64,000 nucleotides of DNA from Gonapodya prolifera JEL478 (lineage: Eukaryota > Monoblepharomycota > Monoblepharidomycetes > Monoblepharidales > Gonapodyaceae): assembly GCA_001574975.1 (NCBI GenBank), contig KQ965797.1, positions 107,125-171,124 of the forward strand, written 5' to 3'. Position 1 is the stretch's first letter. Each line of letters starts with the position of its first letter. The position numbers and the translations under genes were made by a program. Below the pieces are notes generated by a model. That model was given only the letters and a program-made list of their open reading frames with translations, was not told the origin of the DNA and did not search any database. Positions 2,158 to 62,400 of the stretch are shown piece after piece.

Positions 2158-2327
2158 CACCATATATATGTATTTAGAGCGATGTTTTTCGAGCACGGTA
2201 ATATTTGGTACTTGATTGTTGCTTGGAAGCTTCGAGTGTTGCTGCTTGAGTGTGTGTTGCGTTGAGTGTTACTGTGGACAACTGAAACCGGCGAATCTCA
2301 ATCTCCCTCTCGCCCCACCGTACAGCG

Positions 2328-3943
2328 ATGGCAGCGTTGCTCTCCTCGCCCCTCAGCTCGCCTGTGTCGTCGGTCTCCATTCCATCGCTTTCCCTCAATC
2401 CACAGCCACGTCCGCATCACGTTTTCCACGTTTTGGTTGCAGGACCTGTCCGCTCATGGACAGTGAAGCGACGCTATTCGGATTTTTACGCTCTCTTTTC
2501 TCGCTTGACATCGGCCATGCCCGCCGATGCACCTCCCGTCCCGTTTCCACCAAAGACAGCCAACGTTGGACAGGCCGTGTCATCGCTACTGGGCAAATCA
2601 GCGACGGAGGACAGGGAATTCCTGGAGGCTCGGAGGGCGCAGCTGGAGGCGTGGCTTCGCGCTGTCCTGGCCACCTCCCCGGCGTGGCGCGACTCTCAGG
2701 AGTGGGCCGACTTTCTCCAGATTCCAGAGCGTGCCGGGAGAACACCGGTATCCCTCTTCGCTGCCGGACAAAGTCCCTCTACATCCTCTGTCGCATCTAC
2801 TGCGCCGCCGCCTTACCCAGGGCCGCCTTCCGCTGTCTCTGCTCCCACCCTATCGCTCAACACCCCCTCCCCATCGTCGGCACCTCCTCCTGCGACCCAA
2901 TCGCCTCTCGACTCTCGTGCCTGGATAGACGAACATGACAGGCTTCGCTCCCTGGCCCGCGAGATCCGGGGAATCGCCGCGGCGCGACCGAGTTCGGGCA
3001 CAGCTGGTGCGAACCCCTCAGACGCCCGTGCGCACAGGCTGCTCGCGGCATACCAGACGGGACTTGACAGACTTGAAGAGAGTCTCAAGGCGGAGCAAAG
3101 AGGGATGTCGGAGGGGCGATCGGCGACGCCGGGTGCTGATGCGAGGAGTGGCAAGGCTGGATTGAAATCGGCTGAGCCAGTGAAGGTGGGTCAACAAGTG
3201 CAAAGCAGTGGGTGTTTCTGGAGAAAGGAACGCCCAGAGGCAGAGGTCCAGTGTCGGTGATTCAATCGCCGTTAAGAACGTCACAGAGAGCGTCCACATC
3301 GAAGAGCTCAGATCGATTGCACATGCCGCGATGGCATTTCCGTGCATGCTTCATAAAAAGCGCCCGATTTTATTGAGCGATGTGGTTGTGTGCTTTGGGG
3401 ACGCAATCATATTTTGGGCACTTGTCCGTTGCGAACCCTCACGATAATTATTCTCATCTCTGCCAGCCCCCCTCCACCAGTCTCAGTCCTGGCGAAATAT
3501 CCCGTCGCTGGGACCTCCTCGACACACTCCGCTCCGACCTTCCCTCCTTGACTCGCTTGTCCTCGACAGGGCAACAAACTCCCTCAACCCCCCGCCAAGC
3601 TGATTCTACCCGTCGCGCCCAACTCTTGAATAACTCTACACCCTCTCCCTCTGCTTCGTCCAAGCGCCGGTTCGGTTCTGACGCCGCCGCGCTGGAAACG
3701 CCCGAGACGCGAGGTGTTGCTACAGCTGACCTCGTTGGGATGCAGACGCAAGCAATGGCGGCGCAGGACACGAGTTTGGCGGGGCTGGCGGGCGTAGTGA
3801 GGAGACAGAGAGAGCTCGCTGGGGCGATCGGGGAGGAGCTGGAGGTGCACAACAGACTGCTGGGCGAGATGGGTGGCGATGTAGAGAGAACGGGTGGAAG
3901 ATTGAAGAAAGCGGGAAAGAGGCTCGAGAAGATTGTGAAGTGA
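2328..3943 (+). CDS. VAM7: Vam7-like vacuolar Qc-SNARE (PX domain + SNARE motif)
   Basis: Exon 1 is 2328-3185 and exon 2 is 3467-3943, joined in phase 0 (AAG|gtgggt ... tgccag|CCC), giving about 445 residues. Residues 25-140 form a PX domain with RRYSDFYALFSRL (phosphoinositide-binding Arg-Arg-Tyr) and a PFPPK loop. A Pro/Ser-rich linker follows. The last 65 residues (from MQTQAMAAQD to KRLEKIVK) are a Qc-SNARE motif without a membrane anchor. PX plus C-terminal SNARE with no transmembrane helix is the layout of yeast Vam7, which joins Vam3, Vti1 and Nyv1 in vacuole and endosome fusion. The residue at the expected central zero-layer glutamine is histidine (EVHNRLL, codon CAC). The intron is long for this window (281 nt). 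The start is the first ATG before the PX domain. Confidence 0.88.
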
Positions 3944-20095: not shown

Positions 20096-23000
20096 ATGGG
20101 CGAGCCTCTTCCCAACGTGATCTACAATCTGAGACTCGCTGAAGATGGGAGTCCGCCTGGAAGAACAAAGGTGCGGCGATACTACGATTGCAGCTGATGT
20201 TGTGGGGGAAGGAACGGACGCAGCGCGGACGCGGCTAAGAATCGTCGCCAACAGCAGAAATCTGCGGATTGAAATTGAGAGAAAGGCCTTATCGTGCGGG
20301 TGTATTTCATTTGCTGTTCAGAGAGCTTCCTGTTGTCAGTTGTGCAATCTCATCATCACCAAATCACCATTTTCAGTTCATTCGCCTTCCAGCCCCGAAT
20401 CCCGACCACCCTTACTTGCTTCGCTTTGTAATAACGGCGGGATCCTCGGCATTTGTCTCGGCAGAGTTGAAAACAAACTATCCCATCAACCGGTAAGCGG
20501 CGTCGCGTTGTCGCCGTGGAGAGGTGACCGGTTCTTTACATCGTCTGACACATCGCCCTTCTTAATACTTTTGGTTGGCTCTCTAATTTTCAGGAAAGAA
20601 TACCACCGCGACGTTTTCAACACTGTTCCGTGAGTCATGAGTAGCGGAAACTTCTGGAATCCGGACTTCTACCGTGACAGGGACTCTCCGTCAAAAATAT
20701 GCTCCAAATTTAATCGAGTCGCTCTGTATTTACCGGCGGAGCGTGGCATGGGCGGAAGCGGCAATAATCAGGAGACTGTTCCCTTTCAACACGCACTGAC
20801 CCCACCTCTTCTCGCCCCCCCCCAAATAGTTTCTCCTCCACTCCCCTCTCCGATGCGTCATGCACGTTCCCCATCACACAACCCGGCATCTTCCAGTACT
20901 TCGTGGTCCACACCCCACCACCGCCCGATCCCAATGCCCCGAGTTCTCTCGACTCACCTCCGCAGGCGGACCCGGATCCGTTCCACCATCCAATGCTCAA
21001 CTTTAAGCCGCCAAAAAAGGAAATAGCCGAGGGCAAGGTCGCGGCTGCCTGTATGGGATATGTTCTCGTTGATCCGCGTCTCAAGTAAGCTCAACTCGCG
21101 TTCATGATATTGAATCAGGATGGCTCGGACCTCCTCCATGGTGCCATTCCAAGCGACCCGTCGACGCTCTTTAACCCGAAAACCTCATCTTCTGCAGATT
21201 CTTCACTCCCGACTTGTCGGCAAACTACTCCGCCAATCCCTCTGCGACCCTTGTCACCGGACTCGACGGTATCTGCATCCAGACATACGTTCCGAAGTGG
21301 CTTCCCACTCTCCCCAACTGGCCGCCGCACTTCAAATCCTGTGCGGACGCCGGTTACAACATGGTCCACTTTGCGCCTCTGATGCAGCGCGGAGAGTCTA
21401 ACTCCCCGTACTCACTGTACGACCAGCTAGCAATTTCGGATGACCTCTACGATGGGAAGCCCCCGTCTGAAAAGGAAAAGGCGCGATTGTTGAAAGCGAC
21501 CCTGGACCAGATGACGAGGGAGTTGGGCATATTGAGCGTCACGGATGTGGTATGGAACCACACGGCTCACAACAGCGGATGGCTTAAAGAGCACCCGGAA
21601 GCAGGTGATTGAAGCTTGTAACTTTTATACTGGCGTTGTAACTCACAAAGTAGCGCAGGTTACAACCTCATCAACAGCCCTCATCTTCGTCCAGCATACG
21701 ACCTGGACCGCTCTCTCATCGAGTTCTCGAGTGCTTTCCCGCAACATGGGTTGTCTAGCATCATCGATTCCGAAGCAGCGCTCGAACGCGTGGTGTCGGT
21801 GTACTTCACAGACGTTTTCCCAAAGCTCGAACTGTGGAAGTACTTTGTTGTGGATGTAAAATCTACGGTCGAGGCCGTCGTATCAATTGTTGGGCGGGCA
21901 GGAGTAGACTGGTGTGACTTTGGGCCATGGGCGAGCGAGGGAAATTTATCTGCACTAGCACTGAAGGACCGCGCTCAATCACTTGCGAATCACGCTCTCG
22001 CAGTAAAACCCGGGGTGAAGTTTGGCAAAACTGTTGATCCTGCCGCCGCGGCTCGGTTTGTGGCCAAGGTGCTTTCGGACTTGAGAGTTGCCCAGAAGCC
22101 TGGGACACCCGAGTACTTGAGCGTTTTGAAACAGGAATTGATTAAAACACTGGACGAATTCAACTTGCCTTGGTACCAGCGGTACGACGAGGACGTGAAG
22201 GTGATAAGGGGAAATGTGGAAGGGCGAGCGAGGTGGCTCCGGCTTGCGGGGCATGGGCCAAAGCAGGGTCCAGTCTCGAAAAGGTGTGTCACTGCATCAA
22301 AGAGAAATCCTGGGCTTTCGGGTGATGTCGTTTTGCGAGGACAGCGAACCCCTCTGCGATGTGAACTTCACCATCATCGCACGAGACACCGTCAACGCGC
22401 ATTATCCGTCTGATGCGCTCGTCGTCGCCAATAACGGATGGATATGGAATGCAGACCCGCTTAACGTGAGAAATTCTAGTTCTTCGGTTTGCGGACCTTT
22501 GGATCTAAACCCCGTCGTCGAAAAGGATTTTGCCGCACCGGGCCCGTCTTGTGCATATTTCAGGCGAGAAGTCATACCATGGGGCGACTGTGTAGGTACT
22601 TTGCGGTGACTAGTTGCCATGTGACAATAACATCATCTCCATTGGACCCCTATCAGGTCAAGATGCGATACGGCTCCAAAAAGGAGGACAATCCGTACCT
22701 TTGGGTTGGTTTGAACATTATGTATGCAGACTCTCCGCAGCTGACAGCTCTCAACTCCCGCATTTCCCTAGGACCACATGGAGCGGTACACCGTTCTGAT
22801 GGCATCTCTCTTCGATGGATTTCGAATTGACAACTGCCACTCCACGCCAATTCATCTGGCAGAATACCTCCTAGATGCAGCCAGAAAAGTTAACCCTGAT
22901 CTTTTCGTCATGGCGGAGCTTTTTACCGGATCGGAGGAAAAAGACATTATGTTCGTGAGCAAGCTGGGAATCAACGCTCTCATCAGGGAGGCAATGAATG

Positions 23001-26000
23001 CATGGGATCCATTCGAGCTAAGTAGAAATGTCCATCGATATGGAGGGCAAGCGTTGGGTGAGTTCATTCACAATTCCGAGCGTATTCCTCGTCGGCTTCT
23101 TAGACCAGAATGTCAAAGGTTCCTTCACGCTCAACTCGGAGTACGTTCCGCTTCACATTTTGGGACACAATTCAAGTGATGCCGCTCCTCGTGGTACTAA
23201 AGCGGCCCCTCGCACTTTGGTCGTTGACGTGCGAGGCAACTCGCCGAACGCTGTTCTTATGGAGTGGGTTGATGCCCGCATTCAATGGTGTTTGTCTTTT
23301 GTGTAATGCCGAAATTCGGAAGTTGCACGCATGACAACGAGACCCCTGCTCAGAGACGCACACCAGAAGACACCCTTCCAAATGCTGCCGTTGTCGCAAT
23401 GGCAAGCTGTGCCATCGGATCTGTAAAAGGTTATGACGAAATCATTCCCGAGCTGCTGAATGTCGTGCACGAATCCCGAAAGTACAAAGTCGCCAAGCTG
23501 GATGATGGTATAATCCGAGGTGAGTAAGCATTCGACATAGCAAGTAACCCGTACAAACTAGAGGACCCCTTCGTAGCCAAGTCCATTCTACAGAGGCTTC
23601 ACCTGAAGATGGCCCAAGAGGGTTACTCGGAAATCCATGTGCACCAAGAGACTGAGGTGTGAACGCTTTTCTTGCGCGTTCCCCTTCTGGTCGTCTAACA
23701 ATAAATTGCCACCTTATAGTTCATCTCGATTCACAGGAAGAACCCAGTGACGCATGACGGCTATCTCATGATCGCGCGAACCGCTTTCAGCAAATCGAAA
23801 GGATCAGGTATATAATATTGCCTTTTTGTGCACCTGGCGCGGAACAAACTTTTGGTTCACTTCAGGAGTTGGCCATCAACCAATCTATCTCCGTCAACAA
23901 CAAAGCAGGTTAATGTTTGCTGCATCGATTGTTATGGAACAGAAGAATCCCAGCGCTCAAACAAAAGAGCACATCAACGAATCATTCAAGTCCAAAGTAA
24001 CAGGACTCATTGAAGGTCTCCCGTCGCATCTCATTTTCTCCACAGATAAAAGCTCCATGGTAGAACTCGACTATAAGCCCGACGATCAAGGTGATGCCTT
24101 GACCGTGATCAAGATTATCACCGAGAATTTTGTCCCAGGCAGTGTTGTACTTTTCCGGACCAGTGTCGTTGGATCAGGTATCGACACTCAGTCTGTTAGC
24201 CGAAGTCGTGTTGCTTCCAACCGCGAAAGGTCTGGTACGACAGAGGGAAAGTTAGCGCGACTGTGGAGCCTTCTCGGTTTTGAAAACGAGCAGGCCATAT
24301 TCCAAATGATGGTCAACATTGGTTCGGACCCGTTCACTGCGGTTGGAAAAGGCTGGTTTGGAGATGAAAAGGCTCATTGGCCGCCTGGTTTGTTTGAGGC
24401 TGTCAAAGAGCTTCAGATCACGGATCTCAATATTGTGTTGTATCGCAGTGCAGCGGAAGAAGGGGATGGCATAGGTAAGCTCGTTTTTGCACGAAAGTTC
24501 GGACTCCTGTTCTGACTGGGTGATTCAAGGGTTCGGTACATACGACATTCCAGGGCTGGGAAATCTTGCTTACGCAGGGCTTCAAGGGTTCGTGTCGGCA
24601 CTGAGTCCAGTAGCAAGAAACAATGATCTCGGTGCCGCTATTTGTGGCAACTTGCGAGCTGGTCCGTGGATGATGGACTACATTGTTGGCAGACTTGAAA
24701 AGTAAGACTAGATGAATTGTGCAAACATGGTATGTTTTACTAACCTTTTCTTTCAGTTACGCCAAACGTTTCCCGCGGATTGAAGGCATCCGAAACTGGC
24801 TGAATGAACGATTTCAGCTCATTTGCTCCCTTTCCGCTGACTTAATTCCGAAGTACTTCGGGCTCGTTTTGTTTTGCGCCTATCAGGGCTGCCGAATCAG
24901 GGCTGTCGCAGTCCACTCTCTTCCAGCATTTACAAAATCCTCCTCATTCACCGATTCTCTTGAACTCTTTACACATGCCTTAGCAATGGGAGCACCTCAA
25001 ATGTACGGACACGTCAACTCAACCGGGTTGATTCCTGATGCACAGACGTTTCCTGGAAAGCTCCCACCGTCAGTTCTTCATCCAGACAAGTCGGTGAAGA
25101 TAGCGTCACTTGCAGCGGGACTCCCACACTTTGCGACAAATCATATGCGCCTGTGGGGTCGTGATGTTTTCATAGCACTTAGAGGCTCCCTTCTGCTGAC
25201 AAGAGCATTCGATGCTGCTAAGACCCATATAATAGCTTTTGGCAGCACTTTGAGACATGGACTAATCCCAAATCTCCTCGATAGTGGGAAGTATCCGAGA
25301 TACAACGCAAGAGATGCTGCTTGGTTTTGGCTACTCGGAGTTCAAGATTACGTGAACAATGCACCGGAAGGTGTAGCCTTCTTAGCTACAGAAGTTCCGC
25401 GAAGGTTTGCCCCACCACGGAGATACAGGAGAAGCGTAGACGGCAAAGTGCAGCCAGTTGACACAGACCATGAAGATGAATTGACTGATAAGTTTGTGGA
25501 GTGGGATTCTCCCGACAGCTACAGATTCACATCTACTGTGGCGGATTTAATTTTCGAAGTTCTGGATCGTCACGCTCGGGGAATCAAATTCAGAGAATGG
25601 TAAGCATCGAGTGTAATTTTTGCGGATTAAGTTAATTGCAATATTTTTACAGGAATGCCGGCAACCGCCTTGACGAGCACATGAAAAACGAAGGGTTCAA
25701 TATTGAAGCCCGAGTAAGATTTGAGGATGGAACGGGCTTTGTGACTGGGGGAAACAGATTCAATTGTGGAACTTGGATGGTGAGTTTGACTTGACCGCAA
25801 CGGAGCCCCCAACAAAATCGTGATTCAAACCGCATTATCTTGAAAGGATAAAATGGGGTCAAGTGAAAAGGCTGGCAACCGTGGATTCCCCACAACACCC
25901 CGTGATGGTGCTGATATCGAGATCGTAGGACTTTGCAAGTTCGCTGTGGGGTGGTGTGCTCGTTTGGCGAAGCTCGAAGGTGGAAAGTGGTTCCCCTACA

Positions 26001-30369: not shown

Positions 30370-33300
30370 TTCAGGAACCCAAATTCGCCAGTGAGAGTGT
30401 TGCTGGACGAAAACATGTGATGCGGGATGGTTTGATTGTTGTGAATGAGGACTTCTGTGGGGTACGTGTTGGGAAAAGAGCTAACACGGTGGTAGGATCG
30501 TGTGCCTTGGCTGTCAGAGGCCGAGATCTTTTGGTTGATGCGACATCATCCACATTTCTGATTTCAATCATTACCCCATCAATTCCACCATAATTCTCCC
30601 ATGCACACAATGCTTACTCGACGCAGAACTTTTCTTTCACCATTCCGCACTCTCCACTCCGACCTTCGTTTCCTGTACACGCCCATTTCCTTGCAGACGG
30701 CCACGGGGAAGCCGTCCTCGTCCCCCTCAACCCTTCAAGGTGGAAGGGATCAAGAGCCGAGCAGTGGGTCCAAAGAATGGGGAAGGAGGTTCCTGAGGTA
30801 GTCGAGGAGTGAGTTTGGCAATAGGGTGACGGTGCCATAAGACAACCTCGATGGAGAGAAGGAAACAGTGTTTCCGCAGGACGGCGACATGTGGGACTTG
30901 CGCGTTCACAATGTTCGATGTTTGCGCATCACCATTCACACTTCATTGACGTAAATGTTTGCTATTGTGCTCTATCTTTGTGCCAAAATTAGGCTGTTCT
31001 TTGACGCCGTGCGCAAGGCGGACGCGTTTTTAGCGGGAATTGTGAGCATAGCTCAGTGGAGGTCCCCAAAGCAGCACAGACTCACATCTCAATTCGATTA
31101 CTTTAGGTCTCCCGTCAACAACCTCCAAACCCACCCACCACACCACCCCTTCCCACCGGCGCCAGTGACGTCGACCCTTTCGCCTTTCCTTCCTCTCCTC
31201 CTGAGCGCAAACTCTCTCCATATCAGACCCCTCCGAGTGCGATGAATGATGCCTCTGCGACAGTTCACACCTCGATGGAAGAGTACATGCCGCTCCTTCT
31301 CAAGCACCTTCTCCCGCCGCTGAGGTCCTTGCACTTGCGGTTGAATCGGCGGTGAATATACCTGACCCCGGATGTGCCGAGACCCCGCTCAGATAGTGCT
31401 TTTGATCTCCCAATCATGCAGTCTCACCAACCACCTCCCGCAACTATCCTCGGACAACGGTTCCACACTTGTTCTCTCCCTTCTCCTTCCCTCTCACCTC
31501 GTGCTTTCCACCGTCGGAGACTCCTCTGCGCTCCTCCTCTATCGCGGTCTCCCGCTCACCGTCTGGTCCCGCACGGGGCACTCCGAGCCGCCCGGGATCT
31601 GCTCGTACGAAGACTCCCTGGGGGGATTTCCGGTGAATCTGAGAGAGGGTCAGAGCGAGGGAGAAGTAAAGAAGGACTACGAGAAGGTCAAGAAGAGGGT
31701 AAGGAAAGTGGAGGGAGGTGGTGGTAAGGGATGGACCGTCTGGAGCCCGAGGAGTGCATATGGGCTGGGGATGACTGCTACATTGGGTGAGTGTAGCGAA
31801 AGTAGAGTTGGGAAATGTACTCTTGGGGGAATGCCAGCAAGCAAGGGCCTTGATGGAATTTGAACACCAACGATTGCGCACCTGCACTCACCTTCCCCCT
31901 GGCTTTTGTTCCAGGCAATCTCAACCACGCCGGATGTACTATATCTCGGACCAATGTATATGTCTTCGACAAGAATGAGCTCGCGGTAGCGGCGGCGGTT
32001 GTGGAGGGACAAGGGAAATTCGGTCAGTCGGATCAAGGAAGGGATAGACTCACTTTAGTGATGTTATCGGACGGTGTGAAGGTGAGAATATCTCGTTCAT
32101 ACTCTGCAGCCCTTCTTACCAAGTGAACTCTCCAGGATGTCCTAACGGCATCTCAAATCGCCCTCCTGTCACGTTCGCTCCTTCACGGCCTCCGCCTCTG
32201 CTCAGGCACAATACCAGCACCTTCCCCAACCTCACCCCCGGACTTGACGGACGATCCTTCCCTCCCTGTTGAGAACATCGTGGCTCGCGCTCTGCTCCTA
32301 AATGATGCAGCTGGAAGAAAAAGCGCAGAGGAAGTGATGGAGTGTGTTCAAGAGGCGGCCACTGGGGAGGAAGGGGAGGAAATGATTGGTGGCAGCAGTG
32401 ATGGGGATGAAGTGGTTGCACGGCCGAGTTTGAAGGTACTGTGCCGCGCACTTGTTCATGTGGCGAGGATGAGGGGTAGTGGAGACGATGTCACTGGTAC
32501 GTTGATGGGACGTTGTGTGAGGTTGTAGCGTATCTAACAGATGTCAACAAACAGCTTTGGCGGTTGATGTTCCCTTACCTCCATCCCATACTCTTCCGAC
32601 CTCGGCTACTGCGTCCGAGCATAGCTTGCCGTCTCCAAGCACATCACCTGCACCAGTATCTGCTCAGCGTCGCTCCCCATCGGCGACTCCGTCACCGCTC
32701 CGTGCAGATGCTAACGAGCTCCGACGACTGATTGCACCTCCGTACGATGCACAAAATGAAAAGAGGTGCGGTTCGGAATTGGATAAGATGGCTGAGAGGA
32801 TTCTAGTCGAGCCCGGAAGCTTGATAGGCATGGAAGTGGCGTTGGGAGGTGCAAGGGAAATCCAAGATCCTGTAGAAGGCAAGCTCGAATTTCCTCCTGC
32901 GCTTATAGAAGGGAATGAGTTGGAGGAGACGGAGTCGTCGTTTGACGACGCATTGACTGCTGAGGAGGAGTCGGGCCGAAAACCTGAAGGATGTGATGGA
33001 CCGCCCGAACACTCAGAAGTGGCGACGGACCATCCCGCCGACAGTCTTGGAGACAAACCGAATCAAGAAATCGCAGTTGATATTCCCGAAGTGACAATCG
33101 TCGAAGCGGACTTAGCCAAAAGTGACGATAAGGACCGAGAGAACCCCGTTGTGAGACTTCTGCATGTCGGCGATTCTGGCCCTCACCTCTCAGGGCCCGA
33201 TGACCTTCGAGAAAGGACAACTGCAACGAGTGGAAGGATTGGAGTCTTTCAGAGCACCGATAATCCCGATAGAAATACCTATGCAGCTGAAGATTCCATT

Positions 33301-34698
33301 CAACGACGGATCGAACGTGTTGATGACCCAATCCCCTCAGGACAAGGGCCGGATGTTGATTCAGGGACAATCTCCATACCGATCAGTGCACAGTTGGAAA
33401 CTGGGTCGTTGCTGATTGATGACGAAGAGGTTCCCCTTGACAGCTCTTCCATTATTATTGGGAGAGGCACAAACGATAGCCCCATGATGGGTGAAGACGA
33501 AAAAGAAATTATTGGCGGAGAATGGCCTCTCAGTGGATCGCAGCAGCTCGTAGACGAGGATGAAGAACCTGCAGCGCCAAGCCAAGGTTCCATTGAGAGC
33601 CCGCATTCCGAGTACGGCAAAATTGGTTACAAAGAGATGAATGAGGAACCCTTGTCTCAGGAAAGCGTCGTTTTCTTGGGCTCTGAGTTGATGAGGATGC
33701 GAAAAGATTCTGGGGAATCTGTGGATTTGATGGATGGAGGAGTTACTCCAAAGCCTCTTAAAGGAGGTCAAATCGGTGACTCCGATCTTTCGGTGGCAGC
33801 GAAGAGAGTAGTGTGGGATATGGTCGACGAGGCGATGTCCGGGGTTGCTTCACCAGCTGAAGGCCCTCCCGACGAATTTAAATCTAACTCCCAGACTGCG
33901 GAGTCGCCAGAAGAAGCTGATGTCTTTGAGGCACAGTCGACTGCGAACAATTCTGCCCTTGTCGTGCTGACGCAGGACCCCATTGCACCTATACGTGATG
34001 TTCTTGATATGGGGGGAGGAAGGTTGTCACCAGAAGAACGCTCGAATTCTGGAAAGCGACCTCTGCTGGAGTCCGACACCAACTCTGAAATTGACAATGT
34101 GCCGTCTTCAAGACGTGACCTTGTCACTCAATCAGAGCAAACGGATTCTGCATCCCAGATGTCGACCAGTAGTGAACAAATTTTAAAGCGCCGCAAGTTG
34201 AGTAATCCGACGGAAAGCAATGGAGTGAGGGAGCTTTGTGCTTCTGCAGCATTGTTCATCCCCGATATTTCCGAGCACAAGGACGTGTCAGATAATCACC
34301 TCGTTGAAATTTTGAATCAGGCGGAAGGACTGGAACGCGATGAGCCATTATCAGAGGAAATCCCAGATGCCACCCCAGTTGAACTCGATGACTACGCACA
34401 ACCCCGTGAGTCTCTCCAAGCACCCGACTCAGAGGACGTTCCTCTCCGGCCCAGCGAAGTGCCATTTATGGTGTCGGAAGACCAGAAAGAAGAGGAGCAA
34501 AAGCAGATCAATGACGACACGCACCAATTCAAGCACACAGTATCCTCTCAGAATTCATCTCAGACTGAAATTTCCCCTTCCTTCAGCTCTTCGAATGAGG
34601 ACGCCTCAAGTAGTGCCTCTGGAAAGCGTCCCCATTCGGAGGTCAGTACGGACGATGGAAGCACGACGTCACCAACGAAACAGAGAAAGCTGACGTGA
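30370..34698 (+). CDS. PP2C-type (PPM) protein phosphatase-like protein with long acidic tail
   Basis: A spliced catalytic region of PP2C type is visible. An exon near 30410-30465 reads RKHVMRDGLIVVNEDFCG. An exon from 30697 begins the DGHGE metal-binding motif, with the Asp codon split by the intron. An exon near 31160-31350 reads SMEEYMPLLLKHLLPPL. From about 31470 comes GSTLVLSLLLPSHLVLSTVG followed by DSSALLLYRG. The next motifs are VMLSDGVKDVLT (about 32065-32145) and GSGDDVTALAVDV (32470-32565), where Asp-Asp replaces the usual Asp-Asn of the last motif. From 32557 the frame runs open for about 700 codons of acidic, Ser/Glu/Pro-rich sequence, ending KRPHSEVSTDDGSTTSPTKQ at 34698. PP2C enzymes are Mg/Mn-dependent Ser/Thr phosphatases. 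The 5' end is uncertain. Confidence 0.65.
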
Positions 34699-34859: not shown

Positions 34860-37800
34860 CTATCTCCTTTTTGTTGGTACAACCTTTCCCCCAATCGCCA
34901 CAGCATGTGTGGAAACACCGAAGCCTTTCGTCGGGAGAACACGGAGCTGCCGGGAGCCCGTATCGTACTTCATGAAAGCCGCAACGTCCCCCTCGTCGAT
35001 TGCGGAAGGGCCAGTACCACAAAGCTTGCGAGTTCTTAAGCCCGAACCACTTGGACTCGCTGCATTACTCTGATCCAAGCCTCGATGATCGTAGACCAGC
35101 TCGTAAAGTGCACGAAATTTGTGATCACGCTCTTCCTTTACTGCGATGATGAAGCTATCCGCCGTGCTGACTTCGATAGCGGCCAAGGCCTCACGCTTTG
35201 TGTTTTCATTGAGGGCACCTGCAAGTAGTGCGTGTAGTGCGTTCTTTATAAGAGTTCGCGTGGACGAGGGTCGAGTGATGCGGGCTGTCGTAATTTGCGG
35301 GTGCTTCGCAACTCTTGAATGATCTCGTCAGAAAGTAGAAAATTAGGTTTTAATTTTTGTCAGTGATCTCATGCTCAACATACCGTCCTTTTGATCACAC
35401 TTTATTTGTTTACCATGAACCGTTTTCTCCTTGACTGCATCCGGATGTGGCGGTCCACGCTTCATTGTTTTCTTATGTCCATATAGGACGTCTTCCTGGT
35501 CTTCGGAACAGCCATCAAGTGTGGCATCTGAGTCGTGCCTCAGAGTGTTTTGCTGTTGCACTCCACCGGATTGCGTGCGCTTCGGGCGAGCGACTGATGA
35601 CTTTAAAGAGGAAACAGGCGAGGTTGCAGCGACCTCCTCATCACCAATGTTGCCTGAATGACTCGGGTGTGTGATGTGACTTGGTGGTTTGGTCCTTTTA
35701 CTTTTCCCTCGATGCGCACTTCCTGGGGCAACAGTAGCCTTCTGCGTTGCTGATTCCCAAGCTGCTTCTGATGAAGGACCCTTCATTTTTGTGGAAGAGT
35801 CGATCTCTGCCATGCTGGTGTCCATGCTCGACCCACCATTCCCGTCGTCCATAGAAACAAAATAGGCCAAACCCCCTCGAGATGACTTGAGAGCCCCATG
35901 ATCGGGACGAAAATTGGCGAGCACACTTTCAGCAGGTGGCTCGGTATCGAAGGTTGCAGAGGAATTGCTGACTTTGAATGTGTCCCTTTCTTCACCACGA
36001 GTAAATTGTGTCGGGACCGCCCTTTCTCCCGGAGCATCATTGTAAATTACTGGAAAAGGCTCTGAGCTAGATGCTTGTTCTCGCGGGGCTGGTGGCAGAC
36101 ACTCAGGGATCACCAAATCCTCTGGAATGACAGAAGGCACATCCTCCGTTGTGACGAGGGCAGAGTCAGGCCCGTTCACTTGAATTTCCTCCCATCGCCA
36201 CTTTTCATTGTTCTCATCGTTGGGTTGGTGTAGTTCGCTCCACTGTTCTTCTTCTACTTCTTCTTGGTCTTTAAAGCTGGCTTCCAGACCTTCTACCACT
36301 TTTTGATCATCACCGTCCCAAGCAACTTCTTCCTCGATTTCATCAGGCTCACATAGGTCGTCCGCAGGTTCCTTTGATCCAATGAATACTTCAGCTTTCT
36401 GTGGTTCAGTACTGTCTACTCCCAGTTCATTTCTTACTTGGTCCTTCGGTATAGTGTCATCCAAGACATCAAGACTTGTTGACGGGAGTTCTGGCATTGG
36501 CAAAACGGTTGGTGGTGGTATCCCGAGACGCCACTCGAGTTCCAACTGGGGATTCATTTGCTTCGACTCTTCCCCCCTTTCTAATGACTGCAACTGCGAG
36601 CGTGAGGGAGAGTGTAACGATTGCGGAGGTACGACTGGAAGATGTACCGGACGTCGCACCCGAAAACGTCGTGGGGAAAGCGCCGTGCTTTTGATATCAT
36701 AGACGCTTGATTCTGGGATGTTCGAAGGAACCTCTTGCCAATTTGTATGTACATCTCGCGTGACCTTCAAGTCGTCGTTGTCAGGTTTGACATCGTTACG
36801 TTCTTGAATCGTGGACCACCTTTCCTCGCTAACGACAGTTCGAGCACCATGTCCGGCCACTGCTTCGTCATCAGAGTGGAGAGTTTCGTTCGAAACAGCG
36901 GTAGAATCATTTATCTCCTGTTCATTCGGAGGACCTGATTCTTCGTTGGCGATGGAATGGCCGTCCTTCGCTTCTACAGCATCAGCGTTCGCTGTCTCGC
37001 TGGGTGTTCCGTCAGTGGTTTGACAAAAGCCACCCAGCATGTCGCGCTGTTCTGGTATCGCTGATTCTGCGCTCTTCACTGCCTGTTGAGGAAAATCCAT
37101 GTGAGAGGAAGACAGTACCTTTGCACCATCGTCAACCGTGCTTTGGTGAGCGTCCAAACAATACGAGTGACCATCAAGTGGAGCTGAATCGTCGCTTCCC
37201 GCTTCAGAAGAAATCTCATCAGACTTGGTGGCAACAAGACACGAAGAGTTATTCAGTTCTTTACCCGACGTCTCAATGGTAGAAAACGGTTTCGAAGTTT
37301 CCAGACTCAGAGAGAACACGGTGGAGTTCACTTGTTCAATTGGCGCTTTCATTTCGGGAGCTTCGGAAGATTCCAAATAGGGAGATTCATATGTTTGCCC
37401 AAGCTGAAGATTGGGTGTGATGGTTGGAGAACCAGCTCGTTCCGGTTCATGACATTCGACTATTTCTCTGTCCGGAGATGGTAATGGCATCAAGGTTTCT
37501 GATGATGTGAAACTTTCCGCGGGCTGCGTTTGCGATTCCAGTGAAGAGGGTGACTGGGATGATGGATAATTAGATGAGGGCGCAAGGACACTCTCCGTAT
37601 CCACGTTGCACTCTCTAAGCTCGCGCAGCTTCCTTTTCGACATGCGTGTCCGCAAAGGAGCCACAAGAAGAGGAGTTGTGGCACGGGGAGACACAAGGTT
37701 TGAACCAGTTTTGTTGGACACGGTGGGTACAGGGTCAAAGGCAGTGGTAGATTTGGTCGATACCGGATGAACCAAAGTTTCCCGCACGTCACTGCTTCGA

Positions 37801-39587
37801 GAAAGAGTCCGGACGTCGCTCCCGTGACGTTCTACGGTAGGGAGTTCCACTTCTGATCGCACCATCCTCCCTGCATTGACGCAATCCCGAAATACCACTC
37901 CTGTCACCATTCTCGCCACTGCTTCCATCCTTGCCAAGGCAGCTTCGTCAAACGAAGCAGCGTCGCACTCGCTGGGTAGGAAGGGTGAAGTGAACGGTGG
38001 TGATCCGGGATAAGCCAGAGCGACAGCTCGTGGCAAACACGGACGGCACAGAAGAGAGACAAGCGACGGTGGTGCTGTCTTGTCGGCGTTCGCCCTGTAC
38101 GGGGCAGCGCCGGAGAATGTGCCCACGAGGGCGAGGAGCCAGGTTCGCAACACTTCGCTGACATTTGAGATCGCATCCAAGACCGAGCTCTCAGATTGGA
38201 GGTACCTGGAATGGTCAACGTGGCATTTGGACCGACGAAAATACTCAAAATCCACAAGGCACCAACGTTGATTCGGCAAGGACACTTTGCGTATCTGCGG
38301 CGCCAAGTTCACCCAGGAGTTTCTCCATCAACGCGACGTGAGCATCTTCCCTCAGCGGATCCCCTTCTGCGAGTGCATCGCGCATCTCCCACATAAGGTG
38401 CGGAAAGGAATCAGTGGAAGTTTCACTCGGAGAGCCCGTCCCAGGAGGGCACAGTAGGGACGCTGCTAGATTGTAGAGTCTACCCGAGGAGAGAAGGTCT
38501 AAGAGTGACGGAGAGCGGATCGCAGGGCACTATTCAACAAAGGGAGGATGAGTTGTGGAACAATAGTCCAGTCCCTGCAGTGAGCAAAAACCCTTTCCAA
38601 GACACCCAAAGGAGTAATGTCCCGGGGATACCAGAGGCTTGCACACCCTGAAATCTGAGAATCGTTGCTTCACAGACACCAAAACACCCCCACATCATTT
38701 CCCGCAGCTATTCTGTCAAGCCAACTCACATCGTCCTCAACCAACTTGCGAAAGTGGTACTCGAGCTCTTCAATGCATCCCGGCCATGCTGTGTCCTCGA
38801 GGCCGGCATGAGTCGTTCCCGTACTCCCTGCACTTGCCAACACCTCCCGTCCTCGGGCGCACACCTTTCCAAGAAGCACTCGCAGAAGCGGTTTAAACGC
38901 GACGTCCCGTACTTTATGCTCAAAGGGGAACGAAATCGCCATCGCCATCGCTGGGGCGTTCTGAGTTGGAGAAAGTGGCGAGTGCTGGTGCTGGTGATCG
39001 AGTCCGTTGCTGACCAGCGCGGACTGCGAATCCGCAAAGCCTGCAAACGCAGACGAGCGAGTCTTGGCCGAGTTCGGTAAGGACCTTCTACCCAACCCAA
39101 TATGCTCCATCCGTCGCGCGTAGTTTGCGTGCAGAAGCGTCAAAAGATGGACCGCTTCCGAAACATCCCCCGCGCGAATCCTCGCCAGCCTTTCCAAGTC
39201 ATACGCGCATGCGTCCTGCGCCGCCGATGCCGACGCAGGCGCAAGCACACGCCCCACCGCGGCTCCGAGCTTCGAAAACGTCTCCCTTGTCACATCCTCT
39301 TTACTGCTCCCCCTGAGAAACTCGTCCGACGTGAACCACGACAAGTCGATCGACCTTGGATCCACCAGCGCCACGACTTGCGCGAGGGTGAAGCCGTCGG
39401 TGAATTCGGTACGAGGGTCGATGGGGCGGGAGAGGAGGGATTGGAGCCATGCGAGCGCTGCAGAAGCACCAGAGGCAGACGGGGCTTGTCCGTCATCGGA
39501 GTGGGTGGGAGCGGGGTCCGAGCCCGCCGATTTCGCGTGGTTTGTCCGCGAAGAGGGGAGTGCGGAGGCCGGACGCGATTTTTGCAT
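34860..39587 (-). CDS. CAMSAP/Patronin-like microtubule minus-end-binding protein (CH-like + CKK domain)
   Basis: Start ATG at 39587 (MQKSRPASALPSSR). Residues about 40-200 look like a calponin-homology-type domain (ALAWLQSLLSRPIDP, EFTDGFTLAQVVALVDP, DLERLARIRAGDVSEAVHLL). The centre, one open frame from about 38210 to 35384, is Ser/Glu/Pro-rich and predicted disordered, with many acidic blocks. After an intron at about 35327-35383 the last exon encodes a CKK domain: TLIKNALHALLAGALNENTK, AADSF-type strand STADSFIIAV, HKFRALYELV, KLCGTGPSAIDE, FMKYDTGSRQLRVLPTK and GFGVSTHAVAIGG, ending at 34860. These match the CAMSAP signature (IMNALCHVVLAG, FRALY, LYGTGPKSI, KYNSSRKQF, IPAKTMSV). CKK domains bind and protect non-centrosomal microtubule minus ends. 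The coiled-coil part of animal CAMSAPs is not evident. The CH assignment is less sure than the CKK. Confidence 0.82.
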
Positions 39588-39858
39588 GAAATGGGGAATG
39601 CGATGGTGTTGGAAACCCGTCTCCACAGCTTAGCATTCAGTTCTTTTTGGAAAATGAAGGCACTGCAAATATGTAACACCTCTCCACTGACACCAAAGAG
39701 TAGTAGTAATAATAATAATACGGTCGTGCAAAACGTGACGTGGTATGCTTGCTCTCGCTCTCTTGCGACTCGAGTCTCGACTCGACGACTCTCCTCTCCT
39801 CTCCTCTCCTCCACCCAATCCCCCCCCCCACACCCACCCACCCACCGAATCGGCGCCA

Positions 39859-41439
39859 TTACCCCATCTGCGTATACGACCCCAAATCCTCATGCGGCAC
39901 TCTTCGGCGCTTATACGCCACGACGGCTCCGCCCACCAAGAGCACGGTCGCGAGGACCGCGACGCCGATACCGACTTTGACTGGGGCCGTGAGCCCACCG
40001 CCCGTGCCCCCGCCGGAGCCGGAGCCTGTGTCGATTTTTGTGGGTGTGGTTTGGGCGTTTCCACCCACTGTGGCAGCAGGAGCAGGAGCCGCGACGGACG
40101 GTGTGGGTGAGATGGAGGAAGGGGAGGACGGAGGGGTCATTTGGACGTTTGGCGTGAGCGTGGAGGTGGGTGAGGGAGAGGCGGAACTTGACAGCGCGAC
40201 GGGGCTGGCACTCGCGGTCGTTGTGGCTTCAGCGGCAGCCGAGGAAGTGAGGCCCGGGATCGGCGGGATCACGACGATCTGGGCTGGGTTGCCCGTGCAC
40301 TGGGGACTTGGGAGAGTGGCGGCGGCTTCGGTTGTGAATGCTAAGGCGGCGTACGGCGGTGCGAATTGTAGTTTCGAGGTTGGTGCGTGTTTGGAATGTG
40401 GAAGACTTACGGACGGAACCACCCCCGGGACAGTTGCTGATTCCGCTTGTGCTCGCTGGGGCACACAGAGAGGTATTGAACGCCATTCAATCACGGGGAA
40501 AACAAAAAAAAATATCACTCACTGGCCAGCTGGAGGATTCCATCTCCAGTGGGAGGGGGTACGGCAGCGCAAAAGTCCATGAACTTGCCCCACTAATAAT
40601 TCAAACCAACCCGTTAGACATGTCCGTTGAATCTCGTCACGACCCGCGACCGGACAGCCTCGGTCGGCGCTAACGCGCCTAGCCGCGACGTTCATCGGTC
40701 AGCGCCTCGCGGCGCTTCGGCCTCGGGTTCGCTCCGTGTAGTGTCATTCCGCTCCGCGGTTCATTCGCCTCCGGTGGAGGAATACGCTCCGCGTGGGACA
40801 TTCGCGCTCCGCGCAGATCACTCGCCTCCGGCGGACGCCTCGGTCAGCGCTTCGCGCTTAGGCCTCGGGGACCTCCGCTCGCGTTGCTCGCTGCGGTCGG
40901 ACCACTCACCGGATTGGTAATCTTGACAAAAAGCGTCTCTCCGACACAGGTCTCGGTAGCCGGAATGAGAATGTTGTAAGACCCATCGTTGCATACGAGC
41001 GTGTTTGAGACCAGCCGACCCGAGTAGTTGTTGCACAGGTCCGGGTAGGGACCGGCGACCAGTTCCAGGGTGACCACCTTTCCCGATGGAATGAATAAAG
41101 AGAGCAGAGTGCAGCGAGAAAAAAATGAGACGATGCTACGGTGGGATCGCTTCGCAGAGCAAAGGTGGATGCACGGGTGGCTTGACCACGCCCACTCACG
41201 GGAGTGACATTGAAGTTGAGCGGATCCCACACGATGTTGAACGATCCGCCCGGCGTGACGGTCTGGTATCCTGGAGGCGTCCGGGCGGTGTGTCCCGCGG
41301 TCAAGCGAGTGTCGGGTGTCGCGAGTCAGAGGGTCAGGGGGGAGTCGGACGGGTTCCGGTACGTGGAGTCACGCCACTCACCTGCCACACGGGCAGCCAG
41401 CGCGCCCAGCTGAAGTGCGACTGCCGCTGCGATCCACAT
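39859..41439 (-). CDS. Cell-surface Ser/Thr-rich single-pass membrane glycoprotein (Kre9/KNH-like ectodomain)
   Basis: The start at 41439 gives a signal peptide (MWIAAAVALQLGALAARVAG) and an intron. Then PGYQTVTPGGSFNIVWDPL, another intron, VTLELVAGPYPDLCNNYSG and NDGSYNILIPATETCVGETL follow. This beta-sandwich pattern recalls the Kre9/KNH-like domain of fungal wall proteins. After a long intron (40593-40909) comes WGKFMDFCAAVPPPTGDGI, and after a further one CAPASTSGISNCPG. A long Ser/Thr/Pro/Ala stalk follows, then one membrane helix (VGIGVAVLATVLLVGGAVVA) with a YKRRR stop-transfer, and the protein ends at 39859. It should sit in the plasma membrane with an O-glycosylated stalk. The Kre9 link rests on pattern only. 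The 317-nt intron carries a repeat array listed separately. Confidence 0.65.
40593..40909 (-). repeat. Intronic GC-rich repeat array (core CGCGGAGCG in gene sense)
   Basis: This intron is several times longer than its neighbours and is filled with degenerate units of about 20 bp. On the plus strand the core CGCTCCGCG occurs exactly three times (about 40750, 40792 and 40808) with variants such as CGCTCCGTG and CGCCTCCGG, spaced by CATTC-like tracts. Read along the gene, the core is CGCGGAGCG. Many small inverted repeats such as GCGCTTCGCGC suggest hairpins. Confidence 0.6.
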
Positions 41440-41884: not shown

Positions 41885-43227
41885 TCAAATTGCCTGGACG
41901 GTATCAAGGTACCAACTGTGGTTTATCCCAAACTTCCTTTCTTCCGTCCGTGAAACTTTCAGGCCGGTGGGCTTGAGCTCGTTGAACATCTCGTAACCAG
42001 AACCAATCCCCGAGTCTTTTCGTAGGCAGTTTGAGTAGCGCATAACATCCAGCTCATTAACCATCATATATCGACTAAAAACAGTATTTAACCTCCTAAA
42101 CCACACCAGCTGGCTCTTATGCTTCAACATAGCTTTCCGAGAAAGCGTCGGTGTCGCAACGATCAAGTATCGCCGGCTTTTATCTTTCCCCAAATCGTTG
42201 CCGCCGGGATTGGGATCGCGAGGCAGCGAGCGTCCCACCCATGTGAACAGCAAGTCGAGAGAGCCCAGGTACTTTCGGTACAGGGGCACGGAGGCGAGCG
42301 TGAATGTGGTCAGGCGTGACGGTGCTTCGGCGCGCCGGTGCGTCATGAGGTGCCTGCCATCGGGGTAAAACATCGAACATAGCCACAACTGGATACTGAT
42401 CAATCGGCTTACTTGATACCCCTGTAAGTCGCGATGTGATTCGGGTGCCCGCTCACACCGTACTCGTCGAACGTTACAATCTGGCCGTTTGGTGTAAACT
42501 CCACCCGTTCGTGGTACCAAGCACTGGTCAGCAGCACTCACGGTTTCGATATTCCATTTCCTAATGCTATCGAGAACCTTGTCCGCCACGCGGTCAACGT
42601 CCCAAACGTTCTTGAAGCCATCCTGGAGTCCCCTGCAAACACGCACACGATGACTTTTTCGGGCAACCATGAACGAAAAGCAAGAAGACGCACTGGTCGT
42701 CTATGACCGCAACGTTTTCGCGAGGTATGTGGAACTGCCTGCAACTGGCGTACAGCTCTTTCGGACGAACATCTCCCAGATCCCCTGGAGCGAATTGAAT
42801 CCCGCGATTTTTGCACCCCGAGAGAAGTAAAAAAACGTGAACGAGCTCGCCAAATTCCAACGAAACTCGAATCTCGTTCCAATCGCCCCATCATACCTTT
42901 CGAAAGGCACAAAACAAATACCGAGCTCGCCCCGCCCCCGCCATTGCTCTTCGCACCGGCTCTCACAAGCGATGTCAAAGTAACGCCGAAGAAGAGACAC
43001 TCGTCGTCAGGGTGCGCCGTGACGATCATGATCCGTCGCGGGTGCCGCATCGCTCGTGGGAGCGATTCGTCCAGTCGAATCGTGACGATCGCGAGGAGGA
43101 TGTGGGATGCCAGCATTATGGCGATTGAAAGGATCAGAATGCCGTAGACAACGTATTGGAGTGCCGGTCCATGGGCAAGAATGGTCATGCCAGGGGGGTG
43201 GTGTTCCAGCGTCAAACTTGTTGGCAT
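41885..43227 (-). CDS. GPI12: N-acetylglucosaminyl-phosphatidylinositol de-N-acetylase (PIG-L)
   Basis: The start at 43227 (MPTSLTLEHH) is followed by an N-terminal membrane anchor (YVVYGILILSIAIMLASHIL). Then come the metal-binding motif TAHPDDECLFFG and FVLCLSKG. An exon with KELYASCRQFHIPRENVAVI and one with LQDGFKNVWDVDRVADKVLD follow. The second active-site block is TFDEYGVSGHPNHIATYRG (about 42420-42480). The C-terminal exon has KAMLKHKSQLVWFRRLNTVF and FSRYMMVNELDVM, ending at 41885. PIG-L/Gpi12 removes the acetyl group from GlcNAc-PI on the cytosolic face of the ER, the second step of GPI-anchor synthesis. The His-Pro-Asp-Asp and His-Pro-Asn-His metal ligands are all present. The frame continues about 40 residues past the usual end, so the exact C-terminus is uncertain. 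Confidence 0.88.
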
Positions 43228-43408
43228 GTCCACCACCAATGACTGAATGTTCCCAGAAGTGTAGCTATCACATTTTTGTTGTCTTGTCGTGACGAAACTT
43301 GCGACTCATGATATGGTAACGATCCTCACTTAATATTTGGGACAATTTTTGGATTGAAAAAGACAGTCAACGGAATTCCAATATCAACAACTGGAGAAGA
43401 CGCCGGGT

Positions 43409-59427: not shown

Positions 59428-62400
59428 ATGGCGTCTTCCTCGGGCGGAAAACACGACGCAGCAGCAGCAGCCGTGTCTGGCCGCCGGCCCAGCGCACATC
59501 CACTCGGATTCTCCTCGTACGGGTGAGACGCGCCCCGCTCTTCTTCCACCCCGCGCACTCTCACACCTTCCCACCCGAAAATTCCCGCGTTTTCCTGGCG
59601 GATCAAATGACAGCTACGAGGCTGGCACGCCGCCGCGGCCCGGAACGCCACACGTCGACGCGGGCGGTGATGCGGTGCGCGACGTCGACTCGGCAGACCC
59701 ATACACCGGCATCGACCCCTACGCTTACGTCGACAGACTCGCGTCGGATGTGACCGCAGCGCAGAAGAGTGAGGTGAAAGTGCTCGTCGCGAATAGAGGC
59801 GAGATCGCTGTGAGGATCATGTGAGTTGCCGAGGGACCGAGAGAGGTCACCGAGGTCTGAGCGCGGAGCCATCCCGAAGCTACTATCCCACGCGGAGCGT
59901 TATCTTCCGCCCGAGGCAAGTTATGCTCACGCGAAGCGTGTTAATCCTACGCGGAGCGTCATTCTTTGCTGGAAGTCCCCGCGGAGCGCGTATGATCGAT
60001 TCACGGAGCGAGAAAAGCTACCAAGGCGAAATGTTCATCGCGGTGCGGATGTATTGTGGGAATTCCTGGTGATTCTTTACGCGGAGCGGATATCGAACGA
60101 CATAGCGGATGTGTTGAGCGAACTCCTCACCACTCCCTTTCTTCATTTTCTTCGCCCTTTTCGCGCCCAAAAACACACAAACAACAGCCGATCGACACAC
60201 GAACTCGGGTACCGCTCCGTCGCCGTCTTCTCACACGAAGACCGCCTGTCCCAACACCGGTACAAGGCCGACGAGGCCTTCCAGATCGGCGGGGACGATC
60301 ACTCAAAGTACTCTCCCGTACGTTTACAGTTCAGGGGAGCGGGGGGGCGGAAGAGCTTTGCGGTGTTTTCATTCCAAGATTGCCTGTCCCAACGTGCTCG
60401 TCCGTGTTCACCATTCCAGGTCGGCGCATACCTCGCCATCGACGAGATCATCGCCATCGCCAAATCGCGCGGCGTGCACATCATCCACCCGGGGTACGGC
60501 TTCCTGTCCGAGAACGCGGAGTTTGCCCGAAAATGCGAGGCGGCAGGGATCGCGTTTGCGGGGCCCAAGTCGGAGACGATCGAGGCATGTGGGGATAAGA
60601 CAAAGGCGAGAGAGCTTGGTGGGTTGTTTGACGGTCATGGCTTACCGGTGATGGACCGTGCTGACAAAACTCACACGTCTCACTTTTCCCACCCATATGC
60701 GGTACCGTGCTGACACAATTCACATGCCCGCCTCTAGCCAGTCGAAACGACGTGCCCGTTATCCCCGGGTCCGGCCCGCTCGCCACCGCCGATGAAGCTG
60801 TCAAGTTTGCCCAGTCCGTCGGGCTTCCTGTCATTCTCAAAGCCGCGATGGGTGGTGGGGGGCGGGGTATGAGAGTGAGCACGCAGAACTGAATTGAGCC
60901 GGTCCACCTCACAGTAAAAGTGAATCCCACTCCACCTTTATCCCTCTTTGTTTACCCCCCTCTCCTAGGTCGTGCGTGAACTCAAAGACCTCCCCCAGCT
61001 CTTCGACAACGCCCGCTCCGAGGCGCTGACGGCGTTTGGCGACGGTACCATTTTTTTGGAGAAGTTTGTGGAACGACCGCGCCACATCGAGGTGCAACTG
61101 CTCGGCGACGGGCAGGGAAACGTCGTGCACCTGTTCGACCGCGATTGTTCCGTGCAGGTAAGTTACGTGTTGTTTGGGCAGGTCTTCCCACGCGCCAGTT
61201 TGACACCGGCACCGGCACCACGCACTCCAGCGCCGCCACCAAAAAGTCATCGAAATGGGCCCCGCGCTCGGCATCGCTCCCGAGACGCGCAAGCAGATGC
61301 TCGCGGACGCCGTGCGGATGGCCAAGGACGTCAACTACCGCAACGCCGGTACAGCCGAATTCCTTCTCGACCGTGAAGGGAGGTACTACTTCATTGAGAT
61401 CAACCCGCGGATCCAGGTCGAGCATACCGTGACCGAGGAGATCACGGGGGTCGATCTCATCGCGTTGCAGCTCCGTATCGCGCAGGGGAATAGTCTACCA
61501 ACGCTCGGTGTCACCCAGGAGGCGGTCCAGGTCAGGGGGCATGCGATTCAGTGCCGGATGACTACGGAGGACCCGGCAAAGAATTTCCAGCCGGATACGG
61601 TGGGTGGTGTGGCAAACGGCGATGTTCTTGCATCACTTTAATGGATTTGTTTAGGGCCGAATCGAAGCCTATAGGTCGCCGGGAGGACCGGGTGTTCGTT
61701 TGGATGGAGGAAACGCGTTTGCAGGAGCCGTCATCTCCCCGCATTACGACTCGCTCTTAACCAAAGTCACATGCCGCGGCCAAAATTTCGAAGGTGAGTT
61801 GACGATCGAAAGTCTGTACTCGCACCCAAGGGGACAAGTGTTGACCGCCCTCGCCCTTTGCTGTTGTAGATGCTCGCCGCAGAATGATCCGCGCTCTCGT
61901 GGAGTTCCGAATTCGAGGCGTCAAAACAAACGTTTGGTTCCTCGTGCGCTTGTTGAGCCACCAGACTTTTGTCGCCGGCACGCAAATGTGGACGACATTT
62001 ATTGACGACACGCCCGAATTGCTCCAGGGAGTGCGATTCCGGAACAGGGCGTCGAAGCTTTTGTTTTATCTGGTGAGGGTCTCCTGAGGTTAGAGGTATC
62101 TCGACAGTGTCCTTTTATTCACTTTGCGACATGTTTAGGCAGACATTGCCGTGAATGGCAGCCGAGTCAAGGGCCAAAAGGGTGTTCCGACGTGTAAGTG
62201 CTGCTGACTAAAACCTTTAGAAACCCCAACTCATTCATACCGCGAGAAGTGCGGTCCCCTATCTCGGTCCCCAATGTTCCTGGGATAAGCCCAGAGATCT
62301 CCTCAACCACGCCGTGCAAAGAAGGATGGAGAAACATCCTCTTGAAAGAAGGACCAGCTGGCTTTGCAAAGGCAGTTCGCGCACATAAGGGCTGTCTCAT

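What the first reader, a model, noticed from the sequence alone, without database searches (positions are those of the whole stretch)
34860..39587. A CAMSAP/Patronin homologue with a CKK domain in a fungus
The last exon encodes a CKK domain matching, block by block, the animal signature (IKNALHALLAG, HKFRALYELV, KLCGTGPSAIDE, FMKYDTGSRQL, VLPTKGFGVST). The CKK domain was defined as the hallmark of an animal protein family that caps free microtubule minus ends, with a few reports outside animals. A fungal copy with a CH-like N-terminus and a disordered centre would mean the family predates the animal-fungal split and was lost with the flagellum. The seen part is the CKK motif; loss with the flagellum is inference.
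Basis: partly seen in the sequence, partly recalled or inferred. Interest (0 to 1): 0.78.

Follow-up and report, generated by a model that had tools for sequence, protein, structure and literature searches.

The report
CKK microtubule-binding protein in flagellated fungus
A fungus that still carries genes for a swimming tail has a gene whose end encodes a microtubule-gripping domain known mainly from animals; it is real, but the domain was already known outside animals and proposed for the common ancestor of eukaryotes, so it is a useful new member rather than a surprise.

Summary
The CKK domain is real: PF08683, 72 bits, E 5.6e-20, window 34863-35327 (-); one match in the 47.6 Mb genome. The assembly is fungal (72 Fungal_trans matches) with flagellar genes (radial spoke). 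A provisional four-exon model gives 1,455-1,489 aa: folded N-terminus, a long disordered stretch, C-terminal CKK. The CH part is weak: CH_2 E 7.6e-4 and HOOK_N 0.012, both below cut-off; CAMSAP_CH does not match this gene. CH plus CKK defines the CAMSAP family (PMC4016758), so I file it as a CKK-domain protein, not a proven CAMSAP. That CKK predates the animal-fungal split is not new: CKKs are known from Naegleria and Phytophthora and proposed for the last eukaryotic common ancestor (PMC6868217). Minus-end capping should not be assumed: best PDB score is NgCKK, which lacks it, and two loop features resemble it, though identities to NgCKK and animal CKKs are nearly equal. Loss with the flagellum is untested: no other eukaryotic genome could be searched. 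Capped paper listings showed no fungal CKK report. New member of a known kind; modest interest.

The parts
38730..39587 (-). Exon 1: start codon at 39587; residues about 43-89 weakly CH-like (CH_2/HOOK_N)
   Evidence: Frame open 38670-39629; CH_2 E 7.6e-4, HOOK_N E 0.012, both below cut-off; donor GTGAGT at 38729
38530..38729 (-). Intron 1 (200 nt), or two introns around a small extra exon beginning at 38654; unresolved
   Evidence: Both splicings keep the frame; no transcript
38267..38529 (-). Exon 2; faint resemblance to the CAMSAP2 N-terminal CH model
   Evidence: CH_CAMSAP2_N E 0.021 on the ORF, 0.2 and 0.15 on two of the spliced pieces and not listed for the long one; below cut-off
35384..38205 (-). 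Exon 3: end of the folded-looking N-terminal part, then a long, mostly acidic, probably disordered stretch
   Evidence: ORF 35343-38327 of 994 aa; no Pfam match at E 1; TOP-IDP profile
35285..35383 (-). Intron 3: donor GTATGT; acceptor at 35285, 35312 or 35324, all in phase
34860..35284 (-). Exon 4: CKK domain, short tail ending KRR, stop codon
   Evidence: PF08683 72 bits, E 5.6e-20; PDB CKK chains; no Met before the CKK core in this ORF

Best explanation
The gene encodes a CKK-domain microtubule-associated protein of a zoosporic (flagellated) fungus. Its CKK would dock on the outside of microtubules as a wedge between two protofilaments at the intradimer level, as the human and Naegleria CKKs do; the long disordered linker tethers it to a folded, CH-like N-terminal part that probably binds a partner or a second filament site. 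Shown: CKK homology; fungal and flagellar gene content of the assembly; the order of the pieces on one strand in compatible frames. Inferred: vertical inheritance, microtubule binding, that all exons are one transcript, and use in flagellar (central pair or basal body) and perhaps cytoplasmic arrays. I lean to lattice or broad microtubule binding of the Naegleria type over strict minus-end capping.
For: CKK. Like NgCKK and unlike human (alignment read with PMC6868217): the two loop-3 basic positions are 8 residues apart (human 7), and loop 4 is about 15 residues longer than human (NgCKK has a 34-residue insert); the tail after the domain is short, as is NgCKK's. The best PDB score is NgCKK, 52.7 bits against 31.9-37.5 for animal chains. 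Flagellar gene content: radial spoke, katanin p80 con80, two CH_2 genes over cut-off. CAMSAP3 is needed for the central pair in mouse cilia (PMC9247359 abstract), and Camsaps with Wdr47 and katanin for central microtubules (PMC8490363, start of abstract and passages).
Against: Identity is almost the same to all: NgCKK 47 of 130 (36.2%), mouse CAMSAP3 41 of 117 (35.0%), human CAMSAP1 38 of 113 (33.6%), and human to Naegleria 40 of 114, so nearness to NgCKK is slight. Other differences set it apart from both: Lys where human R1528 and NgCKK R678 are Arg, and one residue fewer in helix 1 between the N1492-like Asn and LAG; the Asn and the R1535 Arg are kept. This residue mapping is mine, checked only by spacing. 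No transcript; a strict splice-pattern scan that gave 10 candidates in a 6.5 kb yardstick stretch gave none on this strand. WDR47_COR gave no match, uninformative since no control rang. Structure prediction without relatives was unusable (mean pLDDT 41 and 49), and Foldseek had no match at E 0.001 for either model; the CKK, a known fold, failed too, so this is no test.
Confidence: 0.68

Rival explanations
1. A true CAMSAP/Patronin: CH plus CKK, recognising and protecting free microtubule minus ends as in animals.
For: Domain order fits (weak CH at the start, CKK at the end); the best local alignment to a recalled human CAMSAP1 N-terminus falls on two collinear patches; CH_CAMSAP2_N E 0.021 on one ORF; Asn (N1492-like) and Arg (R1535-like) are kept; CKK identity to animal domains is nearly as high as to NgCKK.
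Against: CAMSAP_CH gives no match on this gene; N-terminal alignment 0.4-1.6 standard deviations above shuffles, reached by 46 to 163 of 500; CKK loop lengths follow NgCKK, which lacks minus-end preference (PMC6868217); helix 1 is one residue short near the residue that affects end selectivity.
Confidence: 0.3
2. The CKK exon belongs to a gene separate from the CH-like exon 1 (two genes in a row).
For: Exon 1's frame ends in a stop at 38670 if the GTGAGT donor is not used; the middle frame has its own Met codons; splice sites are weak.
Against: The CKK ORF has no Met before the CKK core, so it must be spliced to something upstream; an in-phase route from exon 1 to the CKK exists in all 9 splicings tried.
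Confidence: 0.12
3. Flagellum-dedicated role only (central pair assembly), with loss wherever the flagellum was lost.
For: The genome keeps flagellar genes; CAMSAPs are needed for central pairs in mouse (PMC9247359 abstract, PMC8490363 passages).
Against: Animal CAMSAPs also organise non-centrosomal microtubules outside cilia (PMC6678760 passage); no other eukaryotic genome could be searched; a fungal flagellum atlas (PMC13358043: no CAMSAP, CKK or Patronin in the main text) and a chytrid microtubule paper (PMC12659703: no CAMSAP or Patronin; CKK was not searched) do not name it.
Confidence: 0.4
4. Contamination of the assembly, or horizontal transfer from an animal or protist.
For: None of the 72 Fungal_trans matches lies on the window's contig C67, and I did not test whether the neighbouring genes are fungal.
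Against: It lies on a 267 kb contig of the assembly. The glycogen debranching gene of the same window scores 75.7 bits against seven PDB sequences, which I recall as yeast enzymes, and 62.2 against the eighth; the table gives no organisms. The CKK is no nearer to animal than to Naegleria domains.
Confidence: 0.05

Closest known systems
Naegleria gruberi CKK protein (PDB 6quy, 6qve; PMC6868217)
   Same: Best PDB match (E 5.1e-13); loop-3 spacing 8, longer loop 4, short C-terminus
   Different: 36% identity; loop-4 insert about half as long; Lys at the R678/R1528 position; one residue fewer in helix 1
Animal CAMSAP1-3/Patronin
   Same: C-terminal CKK (34-35% identity) after a long disordered region, possible CH near the N-terminus
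   Different: No CAMSAP_CH match here; loop 3 one residue and loop 4 about 15 residues longer here; no long coiled coil seen by eye in the linker (not computed)
CH_2 (SPEF1/CLAMP by recall) and HOOK N-terminal domains
   Same: Weak match over the first half of the CH fold in exon 1
   Different: Below cut-off; clear CH_2 and HOOK_N genes lie elsewhere in the genome

Membership tests
CKK-domain (PF08683) proteins | CKK domain over the curated cut-off | tested here: met
   72 bits against a cut-off of 27; 7 of 7 PDB sequences listed are CKK
CAMSAP/Patronin family | C-terminal CKK | tested here: met
   Last exon; the protein ends 10 residues after the profile match
CAMSAP/Patronin family | CAMSAP-type calponin homology domain in the same protein (CH plus CKK defines the family, PMC4016758) | tested here: not met
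   CAMSAP_CH (PF11971) not listed for exon 1 or three spliced N-terminal models at E 10, nor for the four ORFs at E 1, nor at this locus in six frames at E 1
CAMSAP/Patronin family | Any CH-type domain near the N-terminus | tested here: inconclusive
   CH_2 E 7.6e-4, HOOK_N E 0.012, CH_CAMSAP2_N E 0.021, all below cut-off; fold prediction unusable
CAMSAP/Patronin family | Minus-end recognition | not testable with these tools
   Needs TIRF; loop lengths lean to NgCKK, which lacks it (PMC6868217)
CAMSAP/Patronin family | Conserved central regions CC1-CC3 (CC1 binds spectrin and calmodulin) | not tested
   No model for them at hand
HOOK dynein adaptors | HOOK_N over cut-off | tested here: not met
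   15.9 bits against 23.5

The most novel reading that the evidence does not exclude
Zoosporic fungi keep an ancestral, flagellum-linked CKK protein of the Naegleria type that binds the microtubule lattice without end preference, joined to a SPEF1/HOOK-like rather than CAMSAP-like CH domain. Minus-end capping would then be a refinement of the animal line, and the ancestral job of CKK would be building the flagellar central pair.
Probability: 0.18. Interest if true: 0.6.

Novelty: new member of a known kind. Interest (0 to 1): 0.32.

Why it matters
Two texts in the held library say that CAMSAPs arose with, or are found only in, animals (PMC4016758, PMC6678760; passages). A CKK in a flagellated fungus would be a concrete counter-example on the animals' sister side, and culturable zoosporic fungi would let one ask whether CKK's first task was the flagellum. 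It does not overturn the present view, because CKK was already proposed for the last eukaryotic common ancestor (PMC6868217).

Tried and rejected
CAMSAP N-terminal homology by local alignment against 500 shuffles: z 1.0 (whole N-terminus), 0.4 (exon 1) and 1.6 (residues 215-502), not significant. PDB search with exon 1: two Hook3 chains at E 0.75-0.76; with the region after exon 1: best E 0.28, unrelated enzymes. AlphaFold2 on exon 1 and on the CKK exon without relatives: unusable; Foldseek: no match at E 0.001; of 170 and 136 matches at E up to 10, the 50 rows shown for each name no CH or CKK structure. Relatives in viral contigs (54 pattern stretches, 0 confirmed) and in bacterial and archaeal genomes (33 stretches, 0 confirmed): none; a single protein finds close relatives only. 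NCBIfam: nothing for 3 proteins. Rfam on the window: 0 matches. WDR47_COR: no match, uninformative.

Prior reports of a fungal CKK or CAMSAP: ten searches of the open PMC library. I saw titles and starts of abstracts, and some lists were capped (20 of 25, 20 of 87, 20 of 83, 40 of 58); none of those listed was about a fungal CKK protein, and the passages I opened name none. The key paper (Atherton 2017, 10.1038/nsmb.3483) is not held; from recall its abstract calls CKK widely present among eukaryotes, so it may list fungi.

Full report
What is there. On the minus strand of the window, between 39587 and 34860, lies a gene whose last exon encodes a CKK domain. The frame 34860-35327 scores 72 bits against PF08683 (cut-off 27; E 5.6e-20), profile positions 9-119 of 119. 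A six-frame search of the 47.6 Mb, 207-contig assembly scored 3 candidates and kept one, this one; 0 of 14 control genomes ring. A phmmer search of PDB chains returns seven distinct sequences at E up to 1, all CKK domains: Naegleria gruberi first (E 5.1e-13, in two stretches), then six animal chains (E 2.7e-8 to 1.3e-6).

The rest of the gene. Frames and in-phase GT-AG pairs give a provisional model of four exons: 39587-38730, 38529-38267, 38205-35384 and 35284-34860, with three possible in-phase acceptors before the CKK exon and an optional small exon beginning at 38654. The nine splicings tried all stay open and give 1,455-1,489 residues. The splice sites are not strong: a strict pattern scan that gave 10 candidates in a 6.5 kb yardstick stretch of the same window gave none on this strand; the yardstick candidates were not checked as real introns. 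In favour of a joined transcript, the CKK frame has no methionine before the CKK core, so it must be spliced to something upstream. By composition (recalled TOP-IDP scale, no control) residues from about 40 to about 500 look folded, about 500-1300 more disordered and mostly acidic, and the CKK folded.

The N-terminus. Exon 1 residues about 43-89 match CH_2 (E 7.6e-4) and HOOK_N (E 0.012), both below cut-off; the second exon's frame matches CH_CAMSAP2_N at E 0.021, also below. On the spliced models these become 0.0018, 0.023 and 0.15-0.2. Genome-wide, exon 1 gets E 0.0058 with CH_2 and is not listed with HOOK_N at E 0.1. CAMSAP_CH itself matches neither exon 1 nor the spliced N-terminal models nor this locus in six frames; its one weak match in the genome is at C6:236030 (E 9.2e-4, below cut-off), a place that also matches CH_2. 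A local alignment with a recalled human CAMSAP1 N-terminus is 0.4-1.6 standard deviations above shuffles. A CH-like start is plausible; a CAMSAP-type CH is not shown.

The organism. 72 matches to Fungal_trans at E up to 0.001, counted piece by piece, make the assembly fungal; none of them lies on the window's contig. A radial-spoke protein with six exon matches over cut-off on C3, katanin p80 con80 (two pieces on C34) and two CH_2 genes over cut-off point to a flagellated fungus. Of 15 tubulin pieces, one fragment (L004) carries a motif that I recall as typical of epsilon-tubulin; in PDB its best matches are Asgard and beta tubulins and none of the 60 rows shown (of 170) is labelled epsilon. 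The organism could not be named: 18S searches failed or were empty.

How it probably works. From PMC6868217 (passages, part 1 of section 5, section 7, part 1 of section 12) the CKK domains of human CAMSAP1 and Naegleria share the fold and sit as a wedge between protofilaments at the intradimer site; the human one prefers minus ends and remodels the lattice, the Naegleria one binds the whole lattice. In one search the fungal domain is 36.2% identical to Naegleria (47 of 130), 35.0% to mouse CAMSAP3 (41 of 117) and 33.6% to human CAMSAP1 (38 of 113); human and Naegleria share 40 of 114. Identity alone therefore does not place it. Two loops do lean to Naegleria: the basic loop-3 positions are 8 apart, as R678 and R686 in Naegleria, against 7 for R1528 and R1535 in human; and loop 4 is about 15 residues longer than human, where Naegleria has a 34-residue insert. 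The tail is short. Two features are like neither: Lys at the first loop-3 position, and one residue fewer in helix 1 between the Asn that corresponds to N1492 (whose change to Ala raises affinity and lowers end selectivity in the human domain) and the LAG motif. The residue mapping is mine, checked only by these spacings. I expect microtubule binding (likely), with lattice binding somewhat more likely than strict minus-end capping. Where in the cell is inference: CAMSAPs are required for central-pair microtubules in mouse cilia (PMC9247359 abstract; PMC8490363 start of abstract and passages), and this genome keeps flagellar genes.

Compared with what is known. PMC4016758 (passages) defines the CAMSAP family by CH plus CKK and says that it arose with animals; PMC6678760 (passage) repeats that it is found only in animals. 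PMC6868217 already reports CKKs from Naegleria and from Phytophthora infestans (which it calls a fungus; [quoted passage not shown] PMC9715676 (passage) names a CAMSAP in the proteome of the oomycete Plasmopara. A fungal CKK thus supports, and does not create, the view that CKK predates the animal-fungal split. Ten searches of the open library (some lists capped) listed no paper about a CKK or CAMSAP protein in a true fungus. The main text of PMC13358043 (an atlas of fungal flagellar proteins) has no CAMSAP, CKK or Patronin, and that of PMC12659703 (chytrid microtubules) no CAMSAP or Patronin; supplements could not be read. The 2017 paper most likely to list fungal CKKs is not held.

Verdict. 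A real CKK-domain protein in what is very probably a flagellated fungus, by inference vertically inherited; a new member of a known kind. Not filed as a CAMSAP, since the CAMSAP-type CH was tested and not met. The flagellar-loss idea stays open because no other eukaryotic genome could be searched here.

Noticed in passing
window 32521-34698 (+): A 725-residue open frame without Pfam match at E 1, rich in acidic and Ser residues, ends about 160 bases from the stop of the CKK gene (tail to tail).
   Followed up: partly
window 21622-25603 (+): Exons of a eukaryotic glycogen debranching enzyme (hDGE_amylase, hGDE_central, GDE_C).
   Followed up: partly
window 40657-40869 (+): A GC-rich stretch of short degenerate direct repeats (five two-copy families of 15-24 nt; a CGCCTCCGGCGGA-like unit occurs twice in the window against 0.06 expected); origin unknown.
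   Followed up: partly
window 73-1122, 2286-3260, 9394-9906, 59814-60713 (+) and 42538-43305 (-): Other recognisable pieces: Sel1 repeats with a below-cut-off kinase fragment, PX domain, cyclic-nucleotide-binding domain, biotin carboxylase N-domain, and a PIG-L-like frame just below cut-off.
   Followed up: no
L004 1504-1833 (-), genome contig C15: A divergent tubulin exon with a motif that I recall as typical of epsilon-tubulin, which would fit triplet-microtubule basal bodies.
   Followed up: partly
L015 and L016, genome contig C6:236027-236343: A gene matching CH_2 over cut-off and CAMSAP_CH weakly (E 9.2e-4), perhaps a SPEF1-type protein.
   Followed up: no
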